Shown here piece by piece: positions 28,958 through 61,637 of a DNA stretch of 64,000 bases; the first letter of the stretch is position 1, and every line of letters starts with the position of its first letter. The notes below the pieces were generated by a model. That model had not been told where the DNA came from. It ran no database searches and saw only the letters and a list, made by a program, of their open reading frames with translations. A program made the translations under genes and the position numbers. Origin of the DNA: Verrucomicrobiales bacterium (GTDB lineage Bacteria > Verrucomicrobiota > Verrucomicrobiia > Verrucomicrobiales > DEV007). Where the stretch lies: assembly GCA_028033615.1 (NCBI GenBank), contig JAOFDG010000001.1, forward strand, positions 22,436 through 86,435, given 5' to 3'.

Positions 28958-30703
28958 TTAGCAACTATGTTTTGGTATAAACCTAGTGCCTAGAAAGATA
29001 AAAATAGAAAAAATACCACTAGTTATTGATGCAATTTTGTGTTTAAAACCAGTATTTTCAGCCATTATTTGATTAATTTCGGTACCTTTGTCTGAATTTT
29101 CCGACAATTCCCAATACAGATCGAAAATATCTCCATCGTAAACTTGCTCCAATGTTTGAAGTTCTTTCATTTTTTCGAAGGGAACAAGTTTAATTATAGC
29201 CTCTCTTTCAAGAGCATATTCAGCACTTGGCTTAATTTTTCTATTTTTGAAGGCCCAATTAATAACTGCGATTTTGCCATTATCATCTTGGATGTCCCCT
29301 GAAATTTTTTCAATAATCTCATAATCTGAACCATAAAGGAGGTCTTTATAAGTAGTCAGTTGGGGATTAGGGATGTTGGTTTTTTTTGTCAGTCTGGCTC
29401 GAACAATAATTGGGGAGTTAGGTAGTTCTTTTTTAGGTTCCAGTTCATTAAATCTCACAGTATCCCATTTGATTCCAGCTTCGTGTCTTTGACTTTCGGA
29501 TTGGAAGAGATCTCTAGAAGTTATGGCCCAGATAATAATTTTCTTATTTTCCATCTTAATGGCACTACCACGCCTTTGAGCTAATTTTTTCCTGACTTCA
29601 GTGGCACCGCCACCGTTAATTGATATAACATCTAGAGGCATTCCCAAATTAATGGCAAGGTGCTCAGGAAGACCTGCTCCACTCCCCCAACCAAGACCAG
29701 TATTACTAGAGTAAATATTAGTAAAGCTATCGCCTAGTAAAATAACTTCAGAATTAATATCTTTAGTCATTCCTTTAATAGGATGAACATTGACTAATTC
29801 TTTATTAAAACCTTGGTTAAATATTTGAAGATTATCAACCAAATCTCCGTATCCGGAACGCTCTTCTTTTTCTTGATAATCAATCTTAGTTTTATCAAAA
29901 TTTAAACCCATTGAATGGATATGATTTGCAATAATCTTTGCTGACTCTTCCATCCCCTGAGGAGTCCAGTGCGTATCCTGTTTTAGAAAGACCTGAACAC
30001 TATTCCTAAGTTGAAAAAGTGGATCTGTAAGATCTAATACATCAAGGTTTGGGATGGATTCAAGATCTGCAAAAAACTTCTCAGCGTCTGGGTGTCTGAT
30101 TGGTCCATCAACATTTTTCGTTATCTTATCCGGATAGACCATGGCCTTAGTAGGAATGTTGACGAGTATAAGGTGGCTGCCGAAACCATCTAACTGGTTA
30201 GCAAATTCCTTAATTACCGATGAAGGGTCTCTTCTGTTTTTGATATTTGGGTCCTTATTTACAAAGTTTGGCTCCTCTTTTAAAGGGCCGTATCCAGTCA
30301 ATATATTTAGTGTATCTCGAAAGAACAACCAACCTTCTTCGCCAATACTTGTTTTACGATTTCCTTCTTTAAGTGGTCCCAAACTTAGAGAACTTTGTAT
30401 TATTTTTCTAGGCGGCTCTGCAAAGACTGCGGATTTGAGATTTTCTTCAAAATCATTAAAATGAGCATTTAATGGCAGACCTTTTTGCTTTTTAAATATT
30501 TTCAATATTGGAGCCGAACTAGAAATCTCATTAGAGGATTCGTCATTAAAATACGATGAGACATCAAAAGCATTTCTATAAATTGGAGGAATGGTGATTA
30601 AGATAATAAAAATTGCTATAAATATTCGACAAGCTAAATGGCCCATGACCAATTCAAATTGAGAGTTCAGTGCATTGGTGTTTTCTGTCTTTTTTGATTC
30701 CAT
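28958..30703 (-). CDS. AlgJ/AlgX-like (DHHW/SGNH) alginate O-acetyltransferase-type protein
   Basis: 'EEGWLFFRDTLNILTG', 'FLKQDTHWTPQGMEESA', 'VILLGDSFTNIYS'. Confidence 0.85.
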   Translation of the reverse strand: MESKKTENTNALNSQFELVMGHLACRIFIAIFIILITIPPIYRNAFDVSSYFNDESSNEISSSAPILKIFKKQKGLPLNAHFNDFEENLKSAVFAEPPRKIIQSSLSLGPLKEGNRKTSIGEEGWLFFRDTLNILTGYGPLKEEPNFVNKDPNIKNRRDPSSVIKEFANQLDGFGSHLILVNIPTKAMVYPDKITKNVDGPIRHPDAEKFFADLESIPNLDVLDLTDPLFQLRNSVQVFLKQDTHWTPQGMEESAKIIANHIHSMGLNFDKTKIDYQEKEERSGYGDLVDNLQIFNQGFNKELVNVHPIKGMTKDINSEVILLGDSFTNIYSSNTGLGWGSGAGLPEHLAINLGMPLDVISINGGGATEVRKKLAQRRGSAIKMENKKIIIWAITSRDLFQSESQRHEAGIKWDTVRFNELEPKKELPNSPIIVRARLTKKTNIPNPQLTTYKDLLYGSDYEIIEKISGDIQDDNGKIAVINWAFKNRKIKPSAEYALEREAIIKLVPFEKMKELQTLEQVYDGDIFDLYWELSENSDKGTEINQIMAENTGFKHKIASITSGIFSIFIFLGTRFIPKHSC

Positions 30704-32124
30704 TAGAATTGAAAATAAAGGAATGGATTAAAATCTTGGGCAAACATAAAAGATACAGATAGAACTAATAACAAAAGGCCTATTGATACTTTCGTTTTTG
30801 TTAACTTTTTCAAAAACTGTCCTGAGTTTGGTGTGGCGAAAATGAAAATAATGGAAATTACTGCCATTAACCACACCATTGGTCTGGTGACTTGACTGAG
30901 TAATATCGCTGAGGGTTGACTCGAATCACCAGCGCCAAACATTGAAGATAAATAGATAAATGCTCGATCAAAATTTTCCGCTCTGAAGAAAACCCAAGCG
31001 ATGGCTACTATTGTGAAAGTGAATGATACTTTGATTAAATTTGGAATATTGCGAAATAATCTGGAATTCCTCAACAATTTTTCAATGACAAGAAAGCTTC
31101 CATGAATAATACCCCATGCAATGAATGTCCATTGCGCTCCATGCCATAGACCTCCCAGAAACATCACTAGAATAAGGTTAAAGTAGGTCCTTGATGAGCC
31201 TTTTCTATTACCTCCCAATGGTATGTACAGATAGTCTCTTAAAAAACTAGAAAGAGAGATATGCCATCTTCTCCAGAATTCGGTAATAGATTTTGATTTA
31301 TAAGGCGAATTAAAATTTTCATTAAATCTAAAACCAAACATTCTTCCAAGTCCTATCGCCATGTCTGAATAGGCTGAAAAATCAAAATAAATTTGAAAAG
31401 AATAGAAGCAAATTCCTATCCAAGCAGCCGGTGTGCTTAATGATAATTCTCCGGCGCTGAAGCACAAATCGGCAACTTCACCGACAGGGTTAGCGAGTAG
31501 GATTTTTTTTGCAAAACCATAATTGAACCTTGAGAATCCGTAAACAAATGTTCCGGTTGAATGGATACGCTCCTTCAGTTGATTTGCTATATCACTGTAT
31601 CTAACAATGGGTCCGGCAACAAGTTGAGGGAACATTGAAACGTAACAAGCAAAGGAAAGGAAATCTGTCGCCGGCTTCGCGTGCTTTCTGTAAATGTCTA
31701 TGGTGTATGACATTGACTGAAAAGTATAAAAAGAGATACCAATTGGTAATATGATTTCCCTAAAGAAATTTGGTAGGGGAATTTCACCTAACCCAACTGA
31801 AAGTGCTAAAACGGATATATTATCTACAAAGAAATTTCCATATTTAAAAAATCCAAGGATCGATAAATTAGCAATTATTGAAATTAATAGACCTAACTTT
31901 CTATAGTGCGTTTTTGAACCAGAACCATGTATGACTTTCCCGCATGTAAAATCGATGATCGTTGAAGTAATCATCAGCAATACGAACCATGGGTTCCACC
32001 ATGCATAGAAAAAGTAACTTCCCAATGTAAGCATCAAATGCCTTAGCCTGTGCGGAGAAAAGTAATAGGCTCCAAGGATTAGAGCCAAGAAATAAAAAAT
32101 GAAGATGTGCGAACTAAAGACCAA
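30703..32124 (-). CDS. MBOAT family O-acyltransferase (AlgI-like)
   Basis: 'LPIGISFYTFQSMSYTIDIYR', 'WRRWHISLSSFLRDYLYIPLGGNRKG', 'LGGLWHGAQWTFIAWG'. Confidence 0.95.
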   Translation of the reverse strand: MVFSSHIFIFYFLALILGAYYFSPHRLRHLMLTLGSYFFYAWWNPWFVLLMITSTIIDFTCGKVIHGSGSKTHYRKLGLLISIIANLSILGFFKYGNFFVDNISVLALSVGLGEIPLPNFFREIILPIGISFYTFQSMSYTIDIYRKHAKPATDFLSFACYVSMFPQLVAGPIVRYSDIANQLKERIHSTGTFVYGFSRFNYGFAKKILLANPVGEVADLCFSAGELSLSTPAAWIGICFYSFQIYFDFSAYSDMAIGLGRMFGFRFNENFNSPYKSKSITEFWRRWHISLSSFLRDYLYIPLGGNRKGSSRTYFNLILVMFLGGLWHGAQWTFIAWGIIHGSFLVIEKLLRNSRLFRNIPNLIKVSFTFTIVAIAWVFFRAENFDRAFIYLSSMFGAGDSSQPSAILLSQVTRPMVWLMAVISIIFIFATPNSGQFLKKLTKTKVSIGLLLLVLSVSFMFAQDFNPFLYFQF

Positions 32125-42151: not shown

Positions 42152-43645
42152 TCAAGGTGCGAGCATTTTTGCTACATCACTCAAATTTCTTTCTCTTGCC
42201 CAGTCAGCTGCTGTTTTTCCGTTAACTTTATTTGATTTCTTGGCGCCGTTTTGCAGGAGAATTTCAATGCATTTAATTGATTTTTTATTTCTTTCAATGT
42301 CATTTTCTTTCATTGGATAGACGACCCAGTGTAACGGGGTGATGTTATAAAACCCTTTAGCGTTACTATCAATTCCTTGATCTATAAAAAACTGAAGAGT
42401 TTCTGGTTGTCGCCAATAAGCCGACTCATGCAAGCAAGTTCTCTGTCCATTAATTATATTTAGATCTGCACCGTTTTTAATAAGCATTTTCGCGGCATTA
42501 ATGTATTTTGTTCCAGCTACAACAAGAATTGGTGACTTATTATTCCTTGATTTATTATTGATGTCGGCGCCATTCTTTAAAAGAAACTGCATTAATTCGA
42601 GGTTTCCTTTTGCTGAAGCATAGCCAAGAGCCGTATATGATTCTTCAGTACTGAAATCAATTTGAACACCTTTATTTAAAAGTTTTTCTATTTTTTCTTC
42701 TTCTCCATTCCTTGCAGCATGGAGTAATGATTCCTCAGGACTATCTAAACTAAAAAAAGTTTTTTGAGTAGAAGGTTTGCCTTGTTCCTCTGAGGTTATG
42801 AACTCTTGTAGTTTATTATCCCTAATCAGGTATCCGCCTCGAGACTGCGTATTATTTTCAGGGTCATTTTTTGAGTAATTAGTATAGCCACCACCGATTA
42901 CTAGGTATGAGTCTAGTGTAAAATCACTACTGTTAAGATCTTTATTGTATCCCTCTAAGCCAATAACATTTTTTCCTATATTTAAAGCATCGCTATATGA
43001 TTTAAGCGGGAAAAATTCAAATCCAGTTGCCTCATGATCAGTAACTTTCACCTGACCATTTTCTCCAACAATATTAATAGAAAAGATGTATCTTCCGTTT
43101 AGATGAAGGGCAAAGCTATCATCAAAATTAATAGCCAACATCAGCCTAGATAGATCCATTTCTTTTTGGATTGTAAATTCTTTTCGAATAAAGACAGATT
43201 GGTATTCATTTACCATATCGTTAAGGAGCGTTTTGTCATCGTTATCTGCGTAACCGAATCCGGCTTCCCCATTTTTCCAATTGCCCTTGGTGGCATCAAA
43301 ATTAATAGAGGCCCATTTAAGATTATCTGGTTTCTTTTTTCCCGTAAGATAATGCCAATTACTGTTTGGCTTAATCAGGTATTCGCCCTCTGCATTTCCT
43401 TCGTTTGGGAAACTGAGGTTTAACGTTTTATTAGAGGTCAGCTTACCAAATTCATTATAATTTTCTAAAGTCTCGGTGCCTTCAGAAATACGCTTAATTT
43501 GGAAGCCCCAACTTGTATACTCTATCCAGTTACCTGAAAATTTATTTTCTGTTGAGCTTTCCTCAGAAAAAATATGATCAGTAAAAACGAAAAATTGGCA
43601 CAAATAGGTAAACCAAATTAATTTAATTTTTATCGTTTTAGACAT
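42152..43645 (-). CDS. Secreted protein with N-terminal galactose-binding-like region and C-terminal ankyrin repeats
   Basis: 'GEAGFGYADNDDKTLL', 'RLMLAINFDDSFALHLNGR' plus ANK repeats 'ESYTALGYASAKGNLELMQFLLKNGADIN'. Confidence 0.85.
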   Translation of the reverse strand: MSKTIKIKLIWFTYLCQFFVFTDHIFSEESSTENKFSGNWIEYTSWGFQIKRISEGTETLENYNEFGKLTSNKTLNLSFPNEGNAEGEYLIKPNSNWHYLTGKKKPDNLKWASINFDATKGNWKNGEAGFGYADNDDKTLLNDMVNEYQSVFIRKEFTIQKEMDLSRLMLAINFDDSFALHLNGRYIFSINIVGENGQVKVTDHEATGFEFFPLKSYSDALNIGKNVIGLEGYNKDLNSSDFTLDSYLVIGGGYTNYSKNDPENNTQSRGGYLIRDNKLQEFITSEEQGKPSTQKTFFSLDSPEESLLHAARNGEEEKIEKLLNKGVQIDFSTEESYTALGYASAKGNLELMQFLLKNGADINNKSRNNKSPILVVAGTKYINAAKMLIKNGADLNIINGQRTCLHESAYWRQPETLQFFIDQGIDSNAKGFYNITPLHWVVYPMKENDIERNKKSIKCIEILLQNGAKKSNKVNGKTAADWARERNLSDVAKMLAP

Positions 43646-43750: not shown

Positions 43751-45316
43751 TTAAGGCTTTAACATAGCTGCAATTTCATCAAGTTCCTTGTTCATTGCAA
43801 AGTCATAGGCAGTTTCACCATTTTTTGTTTTTAATGATTTTTTAACCCCTGCATCTAAAAGAATTTTTATCATAACTTTTGTTGTTTCTAGAGAGTCTTC
43901 ATCATCCTTGTTTGCTCTCCAAATAGTCCAATGAAGCGGAGATGATCCGTTACCTGAGACAATGTTGGGATCGACTCCTTTATCTACGAAATATTTTAGG
44001 TTTTTAGGCTGATGCCATAGAGCCGCTTCGTGCAAACAGGTAGCTTTATGCCATTGAATTGCATTGATGTCAGCACCCCTACTAACAAGAAATTTTGCTG
44101 AATTATGATGTTTGGAACCCGCGACTAATAAAATGGGGCTTTTATCGAATCTAGCTTGTTTATTAATATCCGCTCCGTTTTTCAACAATATAGAAGCGGC
44201 CCTGAGGTGTCCTCTAGCTACTGCATATGCTAGCGGCGTGTATGATCCAGGTGTTGTATAATCAACAGGTGTACCTGATTTTAAAAGTGAATTAATTTTT
44301 CTTATATTGCCATCTCTTGCTGCAATTAATAAGGCTTGGCCCGGCTCGTTAATTCTTGTGAATCCTCTACTAGGTTGGGTGACTTTCCCATCTACAGGTG
44401 ATTGAGATTCTCTTAAAACACCGTCAGTAATCATATACCCACCTTCACGATTTCCCTCTAATTCCTCTTCTTTGCTGAATTTGCCCTTTATATCATAAGA
44501 TTTTGTAAAGATATTACTTTTTACGAAATTGGTGTAGCCACCACCTACAATGAGTTGAGGGTCCAATGTAAAATCGCTACTGTCTAATTTTGCATTATGA
44601 CCTTCGATGCCAATGACATTTTTTCCTTCTTGAAGGGCATCGGCGAATGATGCCAATGGAAAATACTCTACTCCAGAGGCTTCATGGTTTGCTACCGTGA
44701 TTTTTCCTTCTTCATCAGTAACGTTAATAGAAAAAACATAACGACCGTTTAGATAGAGAACAAACCCATCATCATAATTAATGGCGAGAGCCAACCGCGA
44801 GATATCTGTGCTTTTAGAAATCTCAAATTCTTTTCTTATATAAACCGTTGTGTACTTATCAAGCATATCACTAAGCACGGTCTCGTCATCGTCATCAGCA
44901 TAACCAAATCCAGCTTTACCTTTTGCCCAGTTAGCTTGCTTTGGGTCAAAGCCAGTTGTTGTCCATTTCAATGCTTCAGGTTTTTTTCCGCCTGCTAGGT
45001 AATCCCACTCTGCCTTAGGTCCAATGATGACCCCTTTTTTTGAAGAGATCGAATCATCATCTGATTCGATAGCTACATTAGCTGTCCTATTCTGGCGGAG
45101 TGTTCCCCACTCGTTATATTGTTTATTGGTTTCTATACCTTTACTAATCGTTTTAATTTGGAATCCACCACTACCATTGAAATTAATCCATTCACCATAA
45201 ATTCCGTTTTCATCATTTCCATTTTCTGCAACATCCTGAGTAATAGTTTTACAAGAGTTAAAAGAAGCCAAAAGAAAAGTGATGGCTAATGCGCGAGTTA
45301 TTAATTTTTTATTCAT
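43751..45316 (-). CDS. Secreted/lipoprotein ankyrin-repeat protein, paralog of 42152..43645
   Basis: Same architecture: 'GKAGFGYADDDDETVLSDMLDKYTTVYIRKEFEI', 'NVIGIEGHNAKLDSSDFTLDPQLIVGGGYTNF', ANK repeats. Confidence 0.87.
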   Translation of the reverse strand: MNKKLITRALAITFLLASFNSCKTITQDVAENGNDENGIYGEWINFNGSGGFQIKTISKGIETNKQYNEWGTLRQNRTANVAIESDDDSISSKKGVIIGPKAEWDYLAGGKKPEALKWTTTGFDPKQANWAKGKAGFGYADDDDETVLSDMLDKYTTVYIRKEFEISKSTDISRLALAINYDDGFVLYLNGRYVFSINVTDEEGKITVANHEASGVEYFPLASFADALQEGKNVIGIEGHNAKLDSSDFTLDPQLIVGGGYTNFVKSNIFTKSYDIKGKFSKEEELEGNREGGYMITDGVLRESQSPVDGKVTQPSRGFTRINEPGQALLIAARDGNIRKINSLLKSGTPVDYTTPGSYTPLAYAVARGHLRAASILLKNGADINKQARFDKSPILLVAGSKHHNSAKFLVSRGADINAIQWHKATCLHEAALWHQPKNLKYFVDKGVDPNIVSGNGSSPLHWTIWRANKDDEDSLETTKVMIKILLDAGVKKSLKTKNGETAYDFAMNKELDEIAAMLKP

Positions 45317-45618: not shown

Positions 45619-46521
45619 TTATTCTTCAATCACTTGAATAGGATTTTCCCTGGTCCAAAAAAAGTAATAAATCGAACAGGTTATCATCATTATAACAAGT
45701 GAAAATGATAATGACCCTAAACCAGTGTGCCATGATTCGAATGCCTCATCATTACTGACAAATTTAAAATATCCCAGAATAGATATGCGAAAGGCATTCA
45801 TCAAAAAAGCTATAATGATTGATGATATAATTATAGCTATGATTTTAAAGAGTGATTTGATGTGACAGGAAATGTAGAACACGTAGATAGTAAAAAAAGA
45901 GATCATTATTTGATGCGCTGAGGAGCAGCTCTGGTGCACTCTCAAAGAAAAATTTTCATGGTATAAAAATATTCCTGAACTTACAATTTTTTGGTCAACA
46001 AACATGGACAATAATTTTGCAGAAATAAAACTGGTACCTTCATTCAAAATTCGACCGGAAGAGAATTTAAACAAAAAACTTGGTACCACAAGAGTAGCTG
46101 CAATCATCACTGTCAGAGAAGTGATGTAAAAAAGAAATCGAAGCTTGTTTTTTTGATCAACAAAGGGATACCAAATCATGCAAATTAATGGGTGTGCAAG
46201 ATACAGTGACCACCGTATAATTTTGAATGATGCCTCAGACTCTTTGTCATAAATATTGTCTTTATAAAAAAAGACTAATATCGAAATTAGAAAAATAAAA
46301 ACAATTATCATTACTGGAAAAAAAGATAGATAATTATCAGACTTCTCCGTAAAACTTGGCGCCTCAACAAAATCCGAAAATATTACCAACATTCCAACCC
46401 AAAAAAGTAATATGCATATGGTCCCTGTTTCCAAAGCATAGCTACTAAAAAATCTTGGTGATATACTGAATGCGATTAACCAGAGGGTAATCATTTGAGG
46501 TGATTGCCTGAAGTGACTCAT
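45619..46521 (-). CDS. Exosortase/archaeosortase family protein (cyanoexosortase-like)
   Basis: Multi-TM; catalytic-type motifs in order: 'SLRVHQSCSSAHQIMISF' (Cys), 'AFLMNAFRISILGYF' (Arg), 'ESWHTGLGSLSFSL' (His). Confidence 0.85.
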   Translation of the reverse strand: MSHFRQSPQMITLWLIAFSISPRFFSSYALETGTICILLFWVGMLVIFSDFVEAPSFTEKSDNYLSFFPVMIIVFIFLISILVFFYKDNIYDKESEASFKIIRWSLYLAHPLICMIWYPFVDQKNKLRFLFYITSLTVMIAATLVVPSFLFKFSSGRILNEGTSFISAKLLSMFVDQKIVSSGIFLYHENFSLRVHQSCSSAHQIMISFFTIYVFYISCHIKSLFKIIAIIISSIIIAFLMNAFRISILGYFKFVSNDEAFESWHTGLGSLSFSLVIMMITCSIYYFFWTRENPIQVIEE

Positions 46522-46547
46522 ATTTATTCACTTTTACAGATAAAACC

Positions 46548-47255
46548 TCAGCTAGACATTTTTAAACGGTTAAAGAAGAGAGCTAATTTTAAGTAGAAAA
46601 CAATAAATATAACTGAGTAGATGACGAATCTTATTGCCTTTAATTTATTTCTTCGGTTTACAGCAATGAACTCCTTTTCTTGCTGTTGAAAGCCATTAAT
46701 TAAAAGCGTTTCTTTGAGTTCTTTGATCTTCAACTTTATTGATTCAAGGTTATCATTCTTATCTATATTCGTCTGGTTACCTGATTGCGCACTAACAGTA
46801 TCAAAAATAAATTTTGCTTCCTCGATTGATTTAATATGATCTACTGATTTTTGTATCTTATCGAGGTATCCATCAAGATTCATTTTGGGTAAGTTTCTCT
46901 TTGTTATTGAATAGGCTCTTTCGGAGTTATCCAAAAGGCATCCTGTATATAAAAGAACTCCAAGACTGCTTATAATAGTAAGCTGTTTCCAGTAAACAGA
47001 AGGTTGATACTTTCTCTCTTCACTTGACATTAAGCTTAGAGAATAAAAAGCTACACCAATGAGTGGAAGGTGAGACCTATCCATTAGTTGGTTTGAGAAA
47101 TTAATTCTCCAAGTTCCTAGGTTATCAGTGCTGTAACCTAAAATTGAAAGGGTGGAGCCAACTAAAAAGAAGATGAATATTAAATTAGCAGATAATCGGC
47201 AAATATGTGTAATGTGGGCTAGTACCTTTTTAGAGGCTTTGCCAGAATCAGACAT
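46548..47255 (-). CDS. HpsJ-like, exosortase-associated membrane protein
   Basis: 'NLGTWRINFSNQLMDRSHLPLIGVAFYSLSLM', central coiled region, C-terminal TM; adjacent to exosortase and substrate. Confidence 0.6.
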   Translation of the reverse strand: MSDSGKASKKVLAHITHICRLSANLIFIFFLVGSTLSILGYSTDNLGTWRINFSNQLMDRSHLPLIGVAFYSLSLMSSEERKYQPSVYWKQLTIISSLGVLLYTGCLLDNSERAYSITKRNLPKMNLDGYLDKIQKSVDHIKSIEEAKFIFDTVSAQSGNQTNIDKNDNLESIKLKIKELKETLLINGFQQQEKEFIAVNRRNKLKAIRFVIYSVIFIVFYLKLALFFNRLKMSS

Positions 47256-47293
47256 TTTGTGATAGCTAGCTCAACTAAAAGCTAACTAAAAAA

Positions 47294-47740
47294 TTAGGCG
47301 CGTTGCCTCTTACGCATTCTTTTTAAGAATCCAATAATTGGTAGAATTCCGAGTATTGGCAATGGGGCAGGGACGTTTGTTGCAGTTATTGCGTAGCCAG
47401 CACTTGTAGTAGTATCCAAACTTCCTCCGTTACCCACAGTAGTGGTGTTATCTGAATACAAAGCATAATCCGTTGCTAGTGGCTCAAATTCACCATAAGC
47501 AAATTTTAAATTGTCTACATTAAAAGCAGTAGCAAACGCTTGAGCTGCACCTTCATTGGTCCACCAAACTGTATCGTCGATTTGAGTAAGAAAAGAATCA
47601 AATGTTCCCGTATTATAAGTGACTTGCCAAACTCCGTCATTATCAGTGCCTGGAGCATCAACGTATTCGGTTACAGTTGTTTGGGCATATACTGAACTCG
47701 CTAGAAATATAGCACTCATAAATATGATAAAAATTCTCAT
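47294..47740 (-). CDS. Secreted exosortase substrate with C-terminal sorting signal VPAPLPILGILPIIGFLKRMRKRQRA
   Basis: N-terminal signal peptide; C-terminal proline-rich motif + hydrophobic helix + Arg/Lys cluster; next to exosortase. Confidence 0.85.
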   Translation of the reverse strand: MRIFIIFMSAIFLASSVYAQTTVTEYVDAPGTDNDGVWQVTYNTGTFDSFLTQIDDTVWWTNEGAAQAFATAFNVDNLKFAYGEFEPLATDYALYSDNTTTVGNGGSLDTTTSAGYAITATNVPAPLPILGILPIIGFLKRMRKRQRA

Positions 47741-52410: not shown

Positions 52411-52758
52411 ATGGCTACAACATACATTAAAAGAAAGAACGGAAAACCTCTCAGCCCAAACTACTACGCTGTGTGGTATGACCTAGAAGGGGAAAGACAA
52501 TCTAAAAGCACTGGCACCCCGAAAAAGAGAGATGCTGTAAAGATAGCTAACAAGTGGGAGTTTGAGTCTCATGAGGCAGAGAAGGCTGTTTTAAAGGAGA
52601 AGCAGGAGACAGCCGAATTGATGTTGGAGGAGTGTCGGAAGCTCTTAACTAAAAAGCAAAAGGATAGAACTCATCATGCGTTTATTAAGCTGATCACACA
52701 ACTATATGAGATTGAGAATGGAGTAGAATTAAAACTCCCTCTAATTGAGTATTCTTAG
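52411..52758 (+). pseudogene. Truncated tyrosine recombinase/integrase N-terminal fragment
   Basis: 'MATTYIKRKNGKPLSPNYYAVWYDLEGERQSKSTGTPKKRDAVKIANKWE' resembles an integrase arm-binding N-terminus; no catalytic domain follows; beside a tRNA fragment. Confidence 0.6.
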
Positions 52759-52844
52759 GATTTAGAGATACATAAAAGGGTAGGCAACTTTTTTTATAAG
52801 AGCATCTCTTGAGGTTATTGATTGATAGAATATAATCTCATTTA

Positions 52845-54092
52845 ATGCGGTGGAACAAAAAGTATTGGAGATCTAGGAATTTATTATTAACTCTACCAAT
52901 ATTGTTTGATGACTTGTCAGCAGAGGATCTGAACAAGGAGAATGTTCAGAAAGTTATTGGAAAAGAAAAGGCTCTTGGACGTAATTTCATATCCCCTTGG
53001 CGCAAAGAAAGACTATCTTTAAATAAGAAACATCGGGGTGGGCTTAATATTGATCTTAATAAACCGACACCTAAACCACTAAGTTTAATCATTAAGAATT
53101 CTAGTGGATGTAAAGATGTTCCTGACCCTAATCCATTTTTAGAACTGGTTGGAACCAAAGAACTTACCCTTTCAGACATTGATTTAAGTGAATGTAAGCT
53201 AGTTCCAACCACTCCGATTGATCATATAAAGCTTGAAGCCCCTTCTGAATTGTCAGCCTCTATGACGCTTTCTGAAATCGATGGTGCATTCTCTAAAATT
53301 AAACTGCCCCTCATTAAATTTAAGGGTGATAATGAATATCTGAATGGGAAAAAAGCCCATGATGCTTTTCAAAGAGAATTCGATAAAAGGGGTAATCCAC
53401 CCTTATGGAGTCAGGAAGATATAATGGATAATTGGTTTAATAAGCCGAATAACAAAATCGAATACCATGTAGAGAGATATCTGACTGAGCTTTGGAACAG
53501 CTTACCAGAAGAAGATCCTATATATCAATTAGGTTCAGAGAAGTTCTATGAATTATTTAGTGTCTTCCATCCCCAAGCTTTACACATTGTAGATCCACAC
53601 TGTAAAGATCCCAGATCTATACTCTTAGCGGATATCATCTTCAGAGATATTTATGGTGATAGCTATATGGAGATTAATCCTGAGAAGATAGAGGTTATAA
53701 AAGAACATGATCAATATCTGAAGTCGATTTCCTGTAATCCTGAATATCTAGAGGATTGCTCTAAGTCAGAGGTAAGGTGTAGAAAGAGGGTGAAGAAGTA
53801 TATCGATAAGGAAGAGACGAGGACTATACCGCAAGATATAATCGAGGCTTACTATCTATTTACACATTATGCGGATGCGTATGCAGGTATTGTCACTAAG
53901 CTACACATTAAGCAATATCTGATAGAGCATGGTGGTGATAAATACAAAGATCCTAAGTATTTAGATAAAGGGAAAAAAGGAGCTTGGAGCGTTCATTGGA
54001 GAGCAGCCGAAAAGTTTGTTCCTATTACATCAGCTTTCGTTAGAGGAAAGGCGATACCTGAACCTGTTGATACATGGCAAGAAGCTCTTTGA
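52845..54092 (+). CDS. Hypothetical protein, no recognised domain
   Basis: 415 aa uninterrupted ORF. Confidence 0.6.
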   Translation: MRWNKKYWRSRNLLLTLPILFDDLSAEDLNKENVQKVIGKEKALGRNFISPWRKERLSLNKKHRGGLNIDLNKPTPKPLSLIIKNSSGCKDVPDPNPFLELVGTKELTLSDIDLSECKLVPTTPIDHIKLEAPSELSASMTLSEIDGAFSKIKLPLIKFKGDNEYLNGKKAHDAFQREFDKRGNPPLWSQEDIMDNWFNKPNNKIEYHVERYLTELWNSLPEEDPIYQLGSEKFYELFSVFHPQALHIVDPHCKDPRSILLADIIFRDIYGDSYMEINPEKIEVIKEHDQYLKSISCNPEYLEDCSKSEVRCRKRVKKYIDKEETRTIPQDIIEAYYLFTHYADAYAGIVTKLHIKQYLIEHGGDKYKDPKYLDKGKKGAWSVHWRAAEKFVPITSAFVRGKAIPEPVDTWQEAL

Positions 54093-57324: not shown

Positions 57325-58317
57325 ATGAACCCCGTACCCTTATTCCTGCTCGCAATATCACTGCCCCTGCTTCTTGGGGGGTGTGGGGAGAAGGAGTCTG
57401 TAGCTGATGTTAAGTCTGAAAAACCTGTTGCTGAATCTAAGCAAATAGAAGAAAAACAGCAGGAAGTTAAAGAGGAAGCTAAGACTGAAGAAGAAATCCC
57501 ATTAAATCCTAATTTAAAGTATGAAATAAAACGTGATAAGGTAATCATCACTGAATGTGATGCAAAGGCATCAGGGGATATAACTATTCCTGCAACTATT
57601 CAAGGTAAGAAAGTCACCAGTATTGGGAACTCTGCTTTTTCTGAATGTAAAGATCTATCAAGCATCACTATTGGGAAAAATATTAACAGAATTGAGAGTT
57701 ATGCATTTTCAGAATGTTCAAAGTTATCCGATATTATAATTCCTAATAATGTCACTCTCATAGGGAAGTCTGTGTTTTCTGATTGCACTTCACTCTCAAG
57801 TATAACTATTGGCAATAAAGTTCAGAGCATCGGTGAAATGGCGTTTGCATCATGCACAAGTCTATCCAGTATCACCATCCCTGAGAGCATCACCATGATT
57901 CGGAATTGGACATTTGTTTCATGTTCTGGACTAGTCAGTATCACTATTCCTGATAGCGTTACACTTATCGGAGATTGGGCGTTCGGTAACTGCACTAGTC
58001 TAAGAACGATCAGAATTTCGAGCGGAGTTACTAATATCGGTGCAGGTGCTTTTAATGCGTGTGCCGAACTCACTAAAGTCGTAGTTGGTCCGAATGTCAC
58101 AAAAATAGGTCGAGCGGCATTTGGAAATTGTTCTTCTTTAAAAGATATAACATTTCTTGGAAATGCACCTAAGATCAACCCATCAGATTTTGAACTTAAT
58201 TTATTACCAGTGCGAGGAATAGATGTTACACCCACCATCTACCGCAACCCCGAAGCAAAAGGTTGGGGGGATACTTGGGCTGGCAGGCCAGTAAAGCTAA
58301 TTAGCGAGAAACCATAA
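57325..58317 (+). CDS. BspA-type leucine-rich repeat (LRR_5) lipoprotein
   Basis: 'MNPVPLFLLAISLPLLLGGCG' lipobox; repeats 'SITIPDSVTLIGDWAFGNCTSL'. Confidence 0.9.
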   Translation: MNPVPLFLLAISLPLLLGGCGEKESVADVKSEKPVAESKQIEEKQQEVKEEAKTEEEIPLNPNLKYEIKRDKVIITECDAKASGDITIPATIQGKKVTSIGNSAFSECKDLSSITIGKNINRIESYAFSECSKLSDIIIPNNVTLIGKSVFSDCTSLSSITIGNKVQSIGEMAFASCTSLSSITIPESITMIRNWTFVSCSGLVSITIPDSVTLIGDWAFGNCTSLRTIRISSGVTNIGAGAFNACAELTKVVVGPNVTKIGRAAFGNCSSLKDITFLGNAPKINPSDFELNLLPVRGIDVTPTIYRNPEAKGWGDTWAGRPVKLISEKP

Positions 58318-59998: not shown

Positions 59999-61054
59999 AT
60001 GGTTAAGCACGTATTAATAGCTCTCTTAACGATATCGGCCATACCTCTCAATGCAGCTGACATCAGTGATCTTAGTTATGATATCATCGAGGACACCGTG
60101 ACCATCTTTGACTGTGTTGAAAAGGCATCGGGTGCTTTAAACATTCCTCCGACTATAGAAGGTAAGTCTGTCACCAGCATCGGGTATCAGGCCTTCTTCA
60201 AATGCACCGACCTTACAAACATCACGATTCCTGATAGCGTCACTAGCATCGGGGCTCAGGTCTTCGCAAAATGCACCAGCCTGACGAGCATCACGATTCC
60301 TGATGGTGTTACTAGGATTGGGGACTCTGCCTTCATTAGTTGCACCAGCCTGACGAGCATCACGATCCCTGATAGCGTAACCTACATCGGTCTAGTTGCC
60401 TTCGCTAACTGCACCAGCCTGACGAGCATCACGATCCCTGATAGCGTAACCTACATCGGGAGTCTGTCTTTCTGTAGCTGCACCGGCCTAAAGAGCATCA
60501 CGATTCCTGATAGCGTCACCAGAATCGGCGATGAAGCCTTCTCTGGCTGCACCGGCCTAAACAGCATCACTATACATGATGGCGTCACCAGAATCGGAGA
60601 TGAAGCTTTCTCTGGCTGCACCAGCCTGACAAGTGTCACCATCCCCGACAGCGTCACCAGCATCGGAGATAAAGCTTTCTCTGGCTGCACCAGCCTGACG
60701 AGCATCACGATTCCTGATAACGTCACCAGCATCAAAGCTGCAGCCTTCTTCAAATGCACCGGCCTGACAAACATCACGATTCCTGATAGTGTCACCAGCA
60801 TCGAAGCTGCAGCCTTCTTCAAATGCACCACCCTGAAGAGCATCACGATCCCTGATAGCGTCATCAGCATCGGGGATTTTACCTTCCGTGACTGCACTAA
60901 CATGACCGCTATAACATTTCTTGGGGATGCCCCAAAGGTGGCAGGAAACGCTTTCGAAGAGGCTTCCCCCATCATCTACCGCAAACCTGAAGCGAAGGGC
61001 TGGGGTGACACTTTTGGTGGTAGGCCTGTAAAGTTGATTAGTGAGAAGCCATAA
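59999..61054 (+). CDS. Secreted BspA-type leucine-rich repeat protein, paralog of 57325..58317
   Basis: Signal peptide; near-identical 23-aa repeats 'TSITIPDSVTSIGDKAFSGCTSL'; C-terminus 'IYRKPEAKGWGDTFGGRPVKLISEKP'. Confidence 0.92.
   Translation: MVKHVLIALLTISAIPLNAADISDLSYDIIEDTVTIFDCVEKASGALNIPPTIEGKSVTSIGYQAFFKCTDLTNITIPDSVTSIGAQVFAKCTSLTSITIPDGVTRIGDSAFISCTSLTSITIPDSVTYIGLVAFANCTSLTSITIPDSVTYIGSLSFCSCTGLKSITIPDSVTRIGDEAFSGCTGLNSITIHDGVTRIGDEAFSGCTSLTSVTIPDSVTSIGDKAFSGCTSLTSITIPDNVTSIKAAAFFKCTGLTNITIPDSVTSIEAAAFFKCTTLKSITIPDSVISIGDFTFRDCTNMTAITFLGDAPKVAGNAFEEASPIIYRKPEAKGWGDTFGGRPVKLISEKP
60165..60900 (+). repeat. 69-bp coding tandem repeats within BspA-like gene
   Basis: Recurring AGCATCACGATYCCTGATAGCGTCACCAGCATCGG...GCCTTC...TGCACCAGCCTGACG units. 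Confidence 0.9.
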
Positions 61055-61220: not shown

Positions 61221-61637
61221 GTGAAATTATTGTTCCAAATATTTTGTCTATGCCTCACAATTATATTTGCTGATGCAGCCACAACTTCAGTTACTGTTGG
61301 AGGACAGGATTATACTGTGACATATGAAAGCACATCATACGATGGCAATGCGTCTCAGTTTCAATCTACGCCATGGTGGAATGATTCATCTCTAGCCCAA
61401 TCTTTTGCACAAGCAACAAGTGTTAGAAATGTTCATTACGCCTATCAAACATGGAGCAGTTTTGTAGATTATCAAAAGTCAAATTCAAGTGGTGGTAGCG
61501 TTGCGGGGACATGGTCAACTTCATCGACTTTTAAGTATGCTGTAAGCGCAGTCGCTGTCCCTGCACCACTACCGATTCTAGGAATTCTACCCGTCGTTGG
61601 TTTTCTTAAGAGAATGCGTAAACGTCAGCGCGCATAG
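61221..61637 (+). CDS. Secreted exosortase substrate, paralog of 47294..47740, same C-terminal sorting signal
   Basis: GTG start, signal peptide; C-terminus VPAPLPILGILPVVGFLKRMRKRQRA; shared 'WW...AQ(A/S)FA...AY' core. Confidence 0.85.
   Translation: MKLLFQIFCLCLTIIFADAATTSVTVGGQDYTVTYESTSYDGNASQFQSTPWWNDSSLAQSFAQATSVRNVHYAYQTWSSFVDYQKSNSSGGSVAGTWSTSSTFKYAVSAVAVPAPLPILGILPVVGFLKRMRKRQRA

What the first reader, a model, noticed from the sequence alone, without database searches (positions are those of the whole stretch)
45619..47740. Compact cyanoexosortase-like sorting module with a non-PEP sorting signal
Three consecutive minus-strand genes: substrate (47294..47740) with C-terminus VPAPLPILGILPIIGFLKRMRKRQRA, a HpsJ-like membrane protein (46548..47255), and an exosortase (45619..46521) with ordered Cys/Arg/His motifs (HQSCSSA, NAFRISILGYF, WHTGLGS). 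Exosortase/PEP-CTERM and cyanoexosortase A/HpsJ-like associations are established families. The signal here lacks a PEP motif and has the PAPLPxLG form I recall from cyanobacterial proteins, so a cyanobacterial-type system in a PVC-like genome is inferred. No EPS cluster is adjacent.
Basis: partly seen in the sequence, partly recalled or inferred. Interest (0 to 1): 0.74.

Follow-up and report, generated by a model that had tools for sequence, protein, structure and literature searches.

The report
Exosortase module with its own tail
A bacterium of the Verrucomicrobia carries a three-gene set that most likely cuts a private C-terminal tag off a small family of secreted proteins to place them on the cell surface; the set resembles a cyanobacterial protein-sorting system but has its own, previously unnamed tag and a very divergent enzyme.

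Summary
The three genes are real, at the stated coordinates, in one tight minus-strand series. 45619-46521 is an exosortase (Pfam and NCBIfam cut-offs passed; Cys199, Arg245, His265 present). It reaches no named subfamily; the best named one is cyanoexosortase A, and a tree groups it with CrtA-like enzymes (94/95; alternative not rejected, p = 0.10). 46548-47255 is a divergent HpsJ homologue, below curated cut-offs. The VPAPLPILG tail occurs three times in this half-complete genome (second copy at 61221-61637) and three times in two genus mates. It is under purifying selection: up to 14 synonymous and 0 amino-acid changes in the tail, while this genome's protein bodies are 26-58% identical. 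But it sits on one paralogous family and was found nowhere outside the genus. The exosortase was found in no other genome searched and is missing from the syntenic locus of the closest relative. In another verrucomicrobial family, six of six HpsJ genes follow a PFE-CTERM-type substrate and three of three precede a CrtA-like exosortase: the window joins both half-modules. Verdict: a dedicated cyanoexosortase-A-like sorting module with an undescribed signal; a new variant of a known kind. Cyanobacterial origin of the tail is not shown.

The parts
47294..47740 (-). Substrate 1, 148 aa secreted protein with the C-terminal tail
   Evidence: signal peptide, tripartite C-terminus; homologous to five other tailed proteins
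47297..47374 (-). Sorting tail VPAPLPILGILPIIGFLKRMRKRQRA of substrate 1
   Evidence: three near-identical tails in the genome; purifying selection on the tail
46548..47255 (-). HpsJ-like membrane protein, 235 aa, with a long charged helical middle part
   Evidence: NF038305 E 1.2e-7 but 31.9 bits, under cut-off 60; hhalign E 1.7e-5 to true HpsJ-like A proteins; 58% identical orthologue in G001
45619..46521 (-). Divergent exosortase, 300 aa
   Evidence: PF09721 63.5 bits (cut-off 25.7); TIGR04178 39.9 (cut-off 23), best named subfamily CrtA 38.3 (cut-off 150)
45925..45927 (-). Codon of proposed nucleophile Cys199 (motif HQSCSSA; CSS where the others aligned have CSG or CTG)
   Evidence: aligned with the invariant Cys
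45787..45789 (-). Codon of proposed active-site Arg245 (NAFRI)
45727..45729 (-). Codon of proposed active-site His265 (WHTGLGS)
61221..61637 (+). Substrate 2, 138 aa paralogue of substrate 1 (GTG start), about 13.5 kb away
61557..61634 (+). Sorting tail VPAPLPILGILPVVGFLKRMRKRQRA of substrate 2
   Evidence: 92% identical to tail 1; 13 synonymous against 2 non-synonymous codon differences

Best explanation
A dedicated exosortase module related to the cyanoexosortase A/HpsJ-A systems. The substrates enter the Sec pathway by their signal peptide (inferred from sequence). The tail holds them in the inner membrane: VPAPLP lies at the outer face, the hydrophobic stretch spans the membrane and the basic cluster stays inside (inferred). 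The exosortase attacks in or near VPAPLP with Cys199, helped by Arg245 and His265, removes the tail, and frees the protein or passes it to an acceptor, probably a lipid or polysaccharide, for the cell surface (inferred from the exosortase family). The HpsJ-like protein is a membrane partner that presents the substrate to the enzyme or links it to polysaccharide export (inferred from gene order only). Shown here: the homologies, the recurrence and selection of the tail, and the gene order. Not shown: cleavage, acceptor, localisation.
For: Exosortase cut-offs passed. The tail recurs on three genes here and three in genus mates. Tail and body evolve differently: within this genome 92-100% tail identity against 26-58% body identity, with Fisher p from 1e-8 to 6e-6 for the synonymous excess in the tail. 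The genus already has a canonical exosortase and PEP-CTERM proteins, so a second tail with a second enzyme makes sense. In family f16 genomes 6 of 6 HpsJ genes sit directly after a PFE-CTERM-type substrate and 3 of 3 directly before a CrtA-like exosortase; a Halotia cyanobacterial plasmid has HpsJ then cyanoexosortase A. Tree: window with CrtA-like enzymes 94/95. The flanks are 86-88% identical to a genus mate, so the module lies in the host chromosome.
Against: The enzyme was found in no other genome: not in 387 other Verrucomicrobiota at 1e-7, and not in the three genus mates that carry the substrate family, tail seen in two of them. In G001 the locus keeps substrate and HpsJ but has no exosortase. 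The motif reads CSS where the others have CSG or CTG. The tail marks one protein family only. The tree placement is on a long branch, and grouping with the canonical clade is not rejected (p = 0.10).
Confidence: 0.72

Rival explanations
1. The tail is processed by the genus's ordinary canonical exosortase; the gene in the window is a drifting or differently specialised extra enzyme.
For: G001, G006 and G008 carry members of the substrate family and a canonical exosortase but no detected copy of the window's enzyme. The window enzyme has CSS and a long branch.
Against: G001 is 53% and G006 81% complete, and the G008 substrate ends at a contig edge, so absence is weakly tested. PEP-CTERM tails in the same genome look quite different. 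The exosortase is joined to substrate and HpsJ by gaps of 26 and 38 bp.
Confidence: 0.15
2. The C-terminus is only a permanent membrane anchor of one protein family, and its neighbourhood to an exosortase is coincidental.
For: All six tails are on one homologous family.
Against: Conservation of exact residues (PAPLP, RMRKRQ) while the bodies diverge is more than an anchor needs; the same substrate-HpsJ and HpsJ-exosortase orders occur in CrtA-like systems.
Confidence: 0.07
3. Horizontal gift from a cyanobacterium: the whole module, tail included, was recently acquired.
For: CrtA is the best named model; HpsJ partner; exosortase absent from relatives.
Against: Substrate and HpsJ are also in G001 at the same place, HpsJ with 58% identity, so they are not recent; the G+C of the module is like its neighbours; HpsJ-A/CrtA-like systems already exist in other Verrucomicrobiota; the tails seen with CrtA-like enzymes are PFE-CTERM-type.
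Confidence: 0.06

Closest known systems
Cyanoexosortase A (CrtA, TIGR03763) with HpsJ-like A (NF050013) and PFE-CTERM (NF050011)
   Same: Exosortase core with Cys, Arg, His; HpsJ-like gene directly upstream of the exosortase; non-PEP tripartite tail; best named HMM and tree neighbour
   Different: All scores far under the curated cut-offs; tail VPAPLPILG instead of the VPF type; substrate, HpsJ and exosortase in one three-gene series; no EPS genes adjacent; no cyanoexosortase-associated protein or domain
HpsJ-A/CrtA-like systems of another verrucomicrobial family (G177, G213, G274)
   Same: Phylum; substrate then HpsJ, and HpsJ then exosortase
   Different: There the two half-modules are apart in the genome, most HpsJ copies pass or nearly pass the curated cut-offs, and the tails are PFE-CTERM-type on different proteins
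Canonical EpsH/XrtA-type exosortase with PEP-CTERM, present in the same genus
   Same: Superfamily motifs, tripartite signal
   Different: Different clade, PEP motif, about 20% identity; a separate system in the genus
Orphan CrtA-like exosortases of Verrucomicrobiales (L048-L050)
   Same: Closest by sequence (phmmer E 5e-9 for L048 in a set of 27; GLGS motif; L048 scores CrtA 117.8 bits)
   Different: About 20% identity; no HpsJ or tailed gene found beside them

Membership tests
Exosortase superfamily (PF09721, TIGR04178) | Curated HMM score | tested here: met
   63.5 against 25.7 and 39.9 against 23 bits
Exosortase superfamily (PF09721, TIGR04178) | Conserved Cys, Arg, His | tested here: met
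   Cys199, Arg245, His265 align with invariant columns; Cys+2 is Ser, not Gly
Exosortase superfamily (PF09721, TIGR04178) | About eight transmembrane helices | tested here: inconclusive
   Several hydrophobic segments by hydropathy; AlphaFold model of low confidence, mean pLDDT 44.5
Cyanoexosortase A (TIGR03763) | Curated cut-off 150 bits | tested here: not met
   38.3 bits
Cyanoexosortase A (TIGR03763) | Same clade as CrtA | tested here: inconclusive
   Groups with CrtA-like enzymes 94/95; canonical grouping not rejected, p-AU 0.10; long branch
HpsJ family (NF038305; HpsJ-like A NF050013) | Curated cut-offs 60 and 140 bits | tested here: not met
   31.9 and 19.5 bits; G001 orthologue 38.7 and 25.9
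HpsJ family (NF038305; HpsJ-like A NF050013) | Homology and exosortase neighbourhood | tested here: met
   hhalign E 1.7e-5, probability 78%; adjacent to exosortase and substrate
PEP-CTERM (TIGR02595, PF07589) | PEP motif or HMM match | tested here: not met
   No NCBIfam or Pfam match for the tail
PEP-CTERM (TIGR02595, PF07589) | Signal peptide plus motif, helix and basic cluster at the C-terminus | tested here: met
PEP-CTERM (TIGR02595, PF07589) | Signal shared by unrelated proteins | tested here: not met
   All six tailed proteins are homologous; genome only about half complete
PFE-CTERM (NF050011) | HMM match | tested here: not met
   No match at E 10, while two f16 substrates score 33-35 bits
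Exosortase systems in general | Exopolysaccharide genes near the system | tested here: inconclusive
   None adjacent in the window; polysaccharide pyruvyl transferase and glycosyltransferase genes lie near substrates in G001 and G008
Exosortase systems in general | Removal of the tail by the enzyme | not testable with these tools
   Needs experiment

The most novel reading that the evidence does not exclude
An unnamed exosortase subfamily paired with a new sorting signal (VPAPLP-CTERM), in which HpsJ is a substrate-specific escort: each tailed substrate, or the enzyme itself, travels with its own HpsJ copy. The window would be the minimal complete version and would give HpsJ a testable role.
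Probability: 0.35. Interest if true: 0.68.

Novelty: new variant of a known kind. Interest (0 to 1): 0.5.

Why it matters
Exosortase signals are recognised through a limited set of named tails; this adds one that no current NCBIfam or Pfam model detects, so such proteins are missed in annotation. The repeated substrate-HpsJ and HpsJ-exosortase adjacencies in Verrucomicrobiota suggest that HpsJ, whose role is unclear, works directly in exosortase processing, and the window gives a compact three-gene set with which to test this.

Tried and rejected
Search of 387 other Verrucomicrobiota for the exosortase: only itself. One genome-contig scan with motif patterns gave only distant Verrucomicrobiales enzymes; the pattern alignment held artificial variant rows, used only to shape the query. 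Plasmid and phage collections held neither tail nor substrate. IMG/VR scans gave no relative. No cyanobacterial chromosome could be made a search centre. Gene conversion as the cause of identical tails: rejected, the tails differ at 13-14 synonymous codons. Contamination or chimeric contig: rejected by synteny at 86-88% DNA identity on both sides. Structure models of the HpsJ-like protein and the exosortase were too poor to use; no convincing PDB relative. A weak second HpsJ hit in the genome (C65, 27 bits) covers only part of the model and was not pursued. Promoter and terminator scans near chance.

Full report
Observation. The genome is a 54% complete draft of 1.65 Mb in 108 contigs; a genome of the same family, G028, is recorded as Verrucomicrobiales (same 22,236-base contig).

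Exosortase. It passes PF09721 (63.5 bits, cut-off 25.7) and TIGR04178 (39.9, cut-off 23) but no named subfamily; the best named one is cyanoexosortase A with 38.3 of 150 bits. Cys199, Arg245 and His265 align with the invariant residues of other exosortases, but the residue two after Cys is Ser where the others have Gly. It is not the genus's usual exosortase: eight of nine genus mates have a canonical one (that of G001 scores XrtA 152 and CrtA 21.6 bits). The window enzyme was not found in 56 relatives beyond one weak 24% hit, nor in 387 other Verrucomicrobiota. In a maximum-likelihood tree it joins CrtA-like enzymes (a Halotia cyanoexosortase A, the HpsJ-linked enzymes of family f16, and orphans L048-L050) with 94/95 support, but on a long branch, and joining it to the canonical clade is not rejected (p-AU 0.10).

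HpsJ-like protein. NF038305 matches at E 1.2e-7 (31.9 bits, under the cut-off of 60), and a profile comparison with true HpsJ-like A proteins gives E 1.7e-5, probability 78%. It is a divergent homologue, not a curated member. A 58% identical orthologue lies at the same place in G001.

Tail. The tail VPAPLPILGILPxxGFLKRMRKRQR is found on three genes of this genome (47294-47740, 61221-61637, and contig C98), on two of G001 and one of G006. A seventh family member in G008 is cut off by a contig end before the tail. There was no further match in 387 genomes of the order. All belong to one family of about 150 aa secreted proteins. Within the genome the tails are 92-100% identical in protein while the bodies are 26-58% identical; the tail differences are almost all synonymous (13 to 2, 13 to 2, 14 to 0), Fisher p between 1e-8 and 6e-6 against the bodies. 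This excludes gene conversion and indicates that the tail itself is recognised. The G001/G006 orthologous pair does not show the excess (2 to 4), which could mean relaxation where the enzyme is missing, but the numbers are small.

Gene order elsewhere. In three genomes of verrucomicrobial family f16 there are nine HpsJ genes found by the family model. Six stand directly downstream of a secreted protein with a PFE-CTERM-type tail (two of five scored pass the NF050011 cut-off of 24 bits, two score about 20, the rest were judged by eye), and three stand directly upstream of an exosortase whose best named model is CrtA. A Halotia (cyanobacterial) plasmid has HpsJ directly upstream of a cyanoexosortase A-type gene beside glycosyltransferase genes, with two tailed proteins nearby. 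The window's series substrate-HpsJ-exosortase is thus both half-modules joined. In G001 only substrate-HpsJ is at the locus, with 199 bp between HpsJ and the next gene where the exosortase stands in the window.

How it most likely works. By analogy with exosortase/PEP-CTERM systems (Haft et al. 2006, PMC1569441; CrtB in Nostoc, PMC12188702): Sec export, retention by the tail, removal by the Cys enzyme, transfer to the surface or to polysaccharide. Adjacency of enzyme and target is typical of dedicated systems (shown for rhombosortase, PMC3237569). Everything after the homologies and the selection on the tail is inference; [quoted passage not shown] HpsJ as escort or presenter is my inference from gene order.

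Membership and novelty. It is an exosortase; it is not a curated member of cyanoexosortase A, HpsJ, PEP-CTERM or PFE-CTERM. I call it a new variant of a known kind.

Polysaccharide link. None adjacent in the window; an AlgX-like protein and an MBOAT acyltransferase lie 13-17 kb off (28958-32124). In G001 and G008 polysaccharide pyruvyl transferase and glycosyltransferase genes lie within a few kb of genes of the substrate family; suggestive only.

Noticed in passing
window 52730-53965: 98.5% identical over 1236 nt to genus mate G001 (L041:10765-12000), while neighbouring DNA is about 88-91% identical: perhaps a recently transferred or converted segment.
   Followed up: partly
window 42152-43645 and 43751-45316: Two tandem paralogous secreted ankyrin-repeat proteins directly downstream of the module, the second with a lipoprotein-like start; the nearer one is conserved at this place in G001.
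   Followed up: no
L096-L104 (family f16 genomes): Nine HpsJ-like genes: six follow a PFE-CTERM-type substrate, three precede a CrtA-like exosortase. A cyanobacterial-type HpsJ-A/PFE-CTERM system in Verrucomicrobiota.
   Followed up: yes
L042:7086-7586 and L043:8296-8796: Two tailed orthologues carry 11-13 extra residues after the basic cluster, unusual for a C-terminal sorting signal.
   Followed up: no
window 57325-58317 and 59999-61054: Two proteins of leucine-rich, BspA-like repeats (by eye), the second just upstream of substrate 2.
   Followed up: no
L048-L050: Orphan CrtA-like exosortases in Verrucomicrobiales in a conserved neighbourhood, with no HpsJ or tailed gene seen beside them.
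   Followed up: partly
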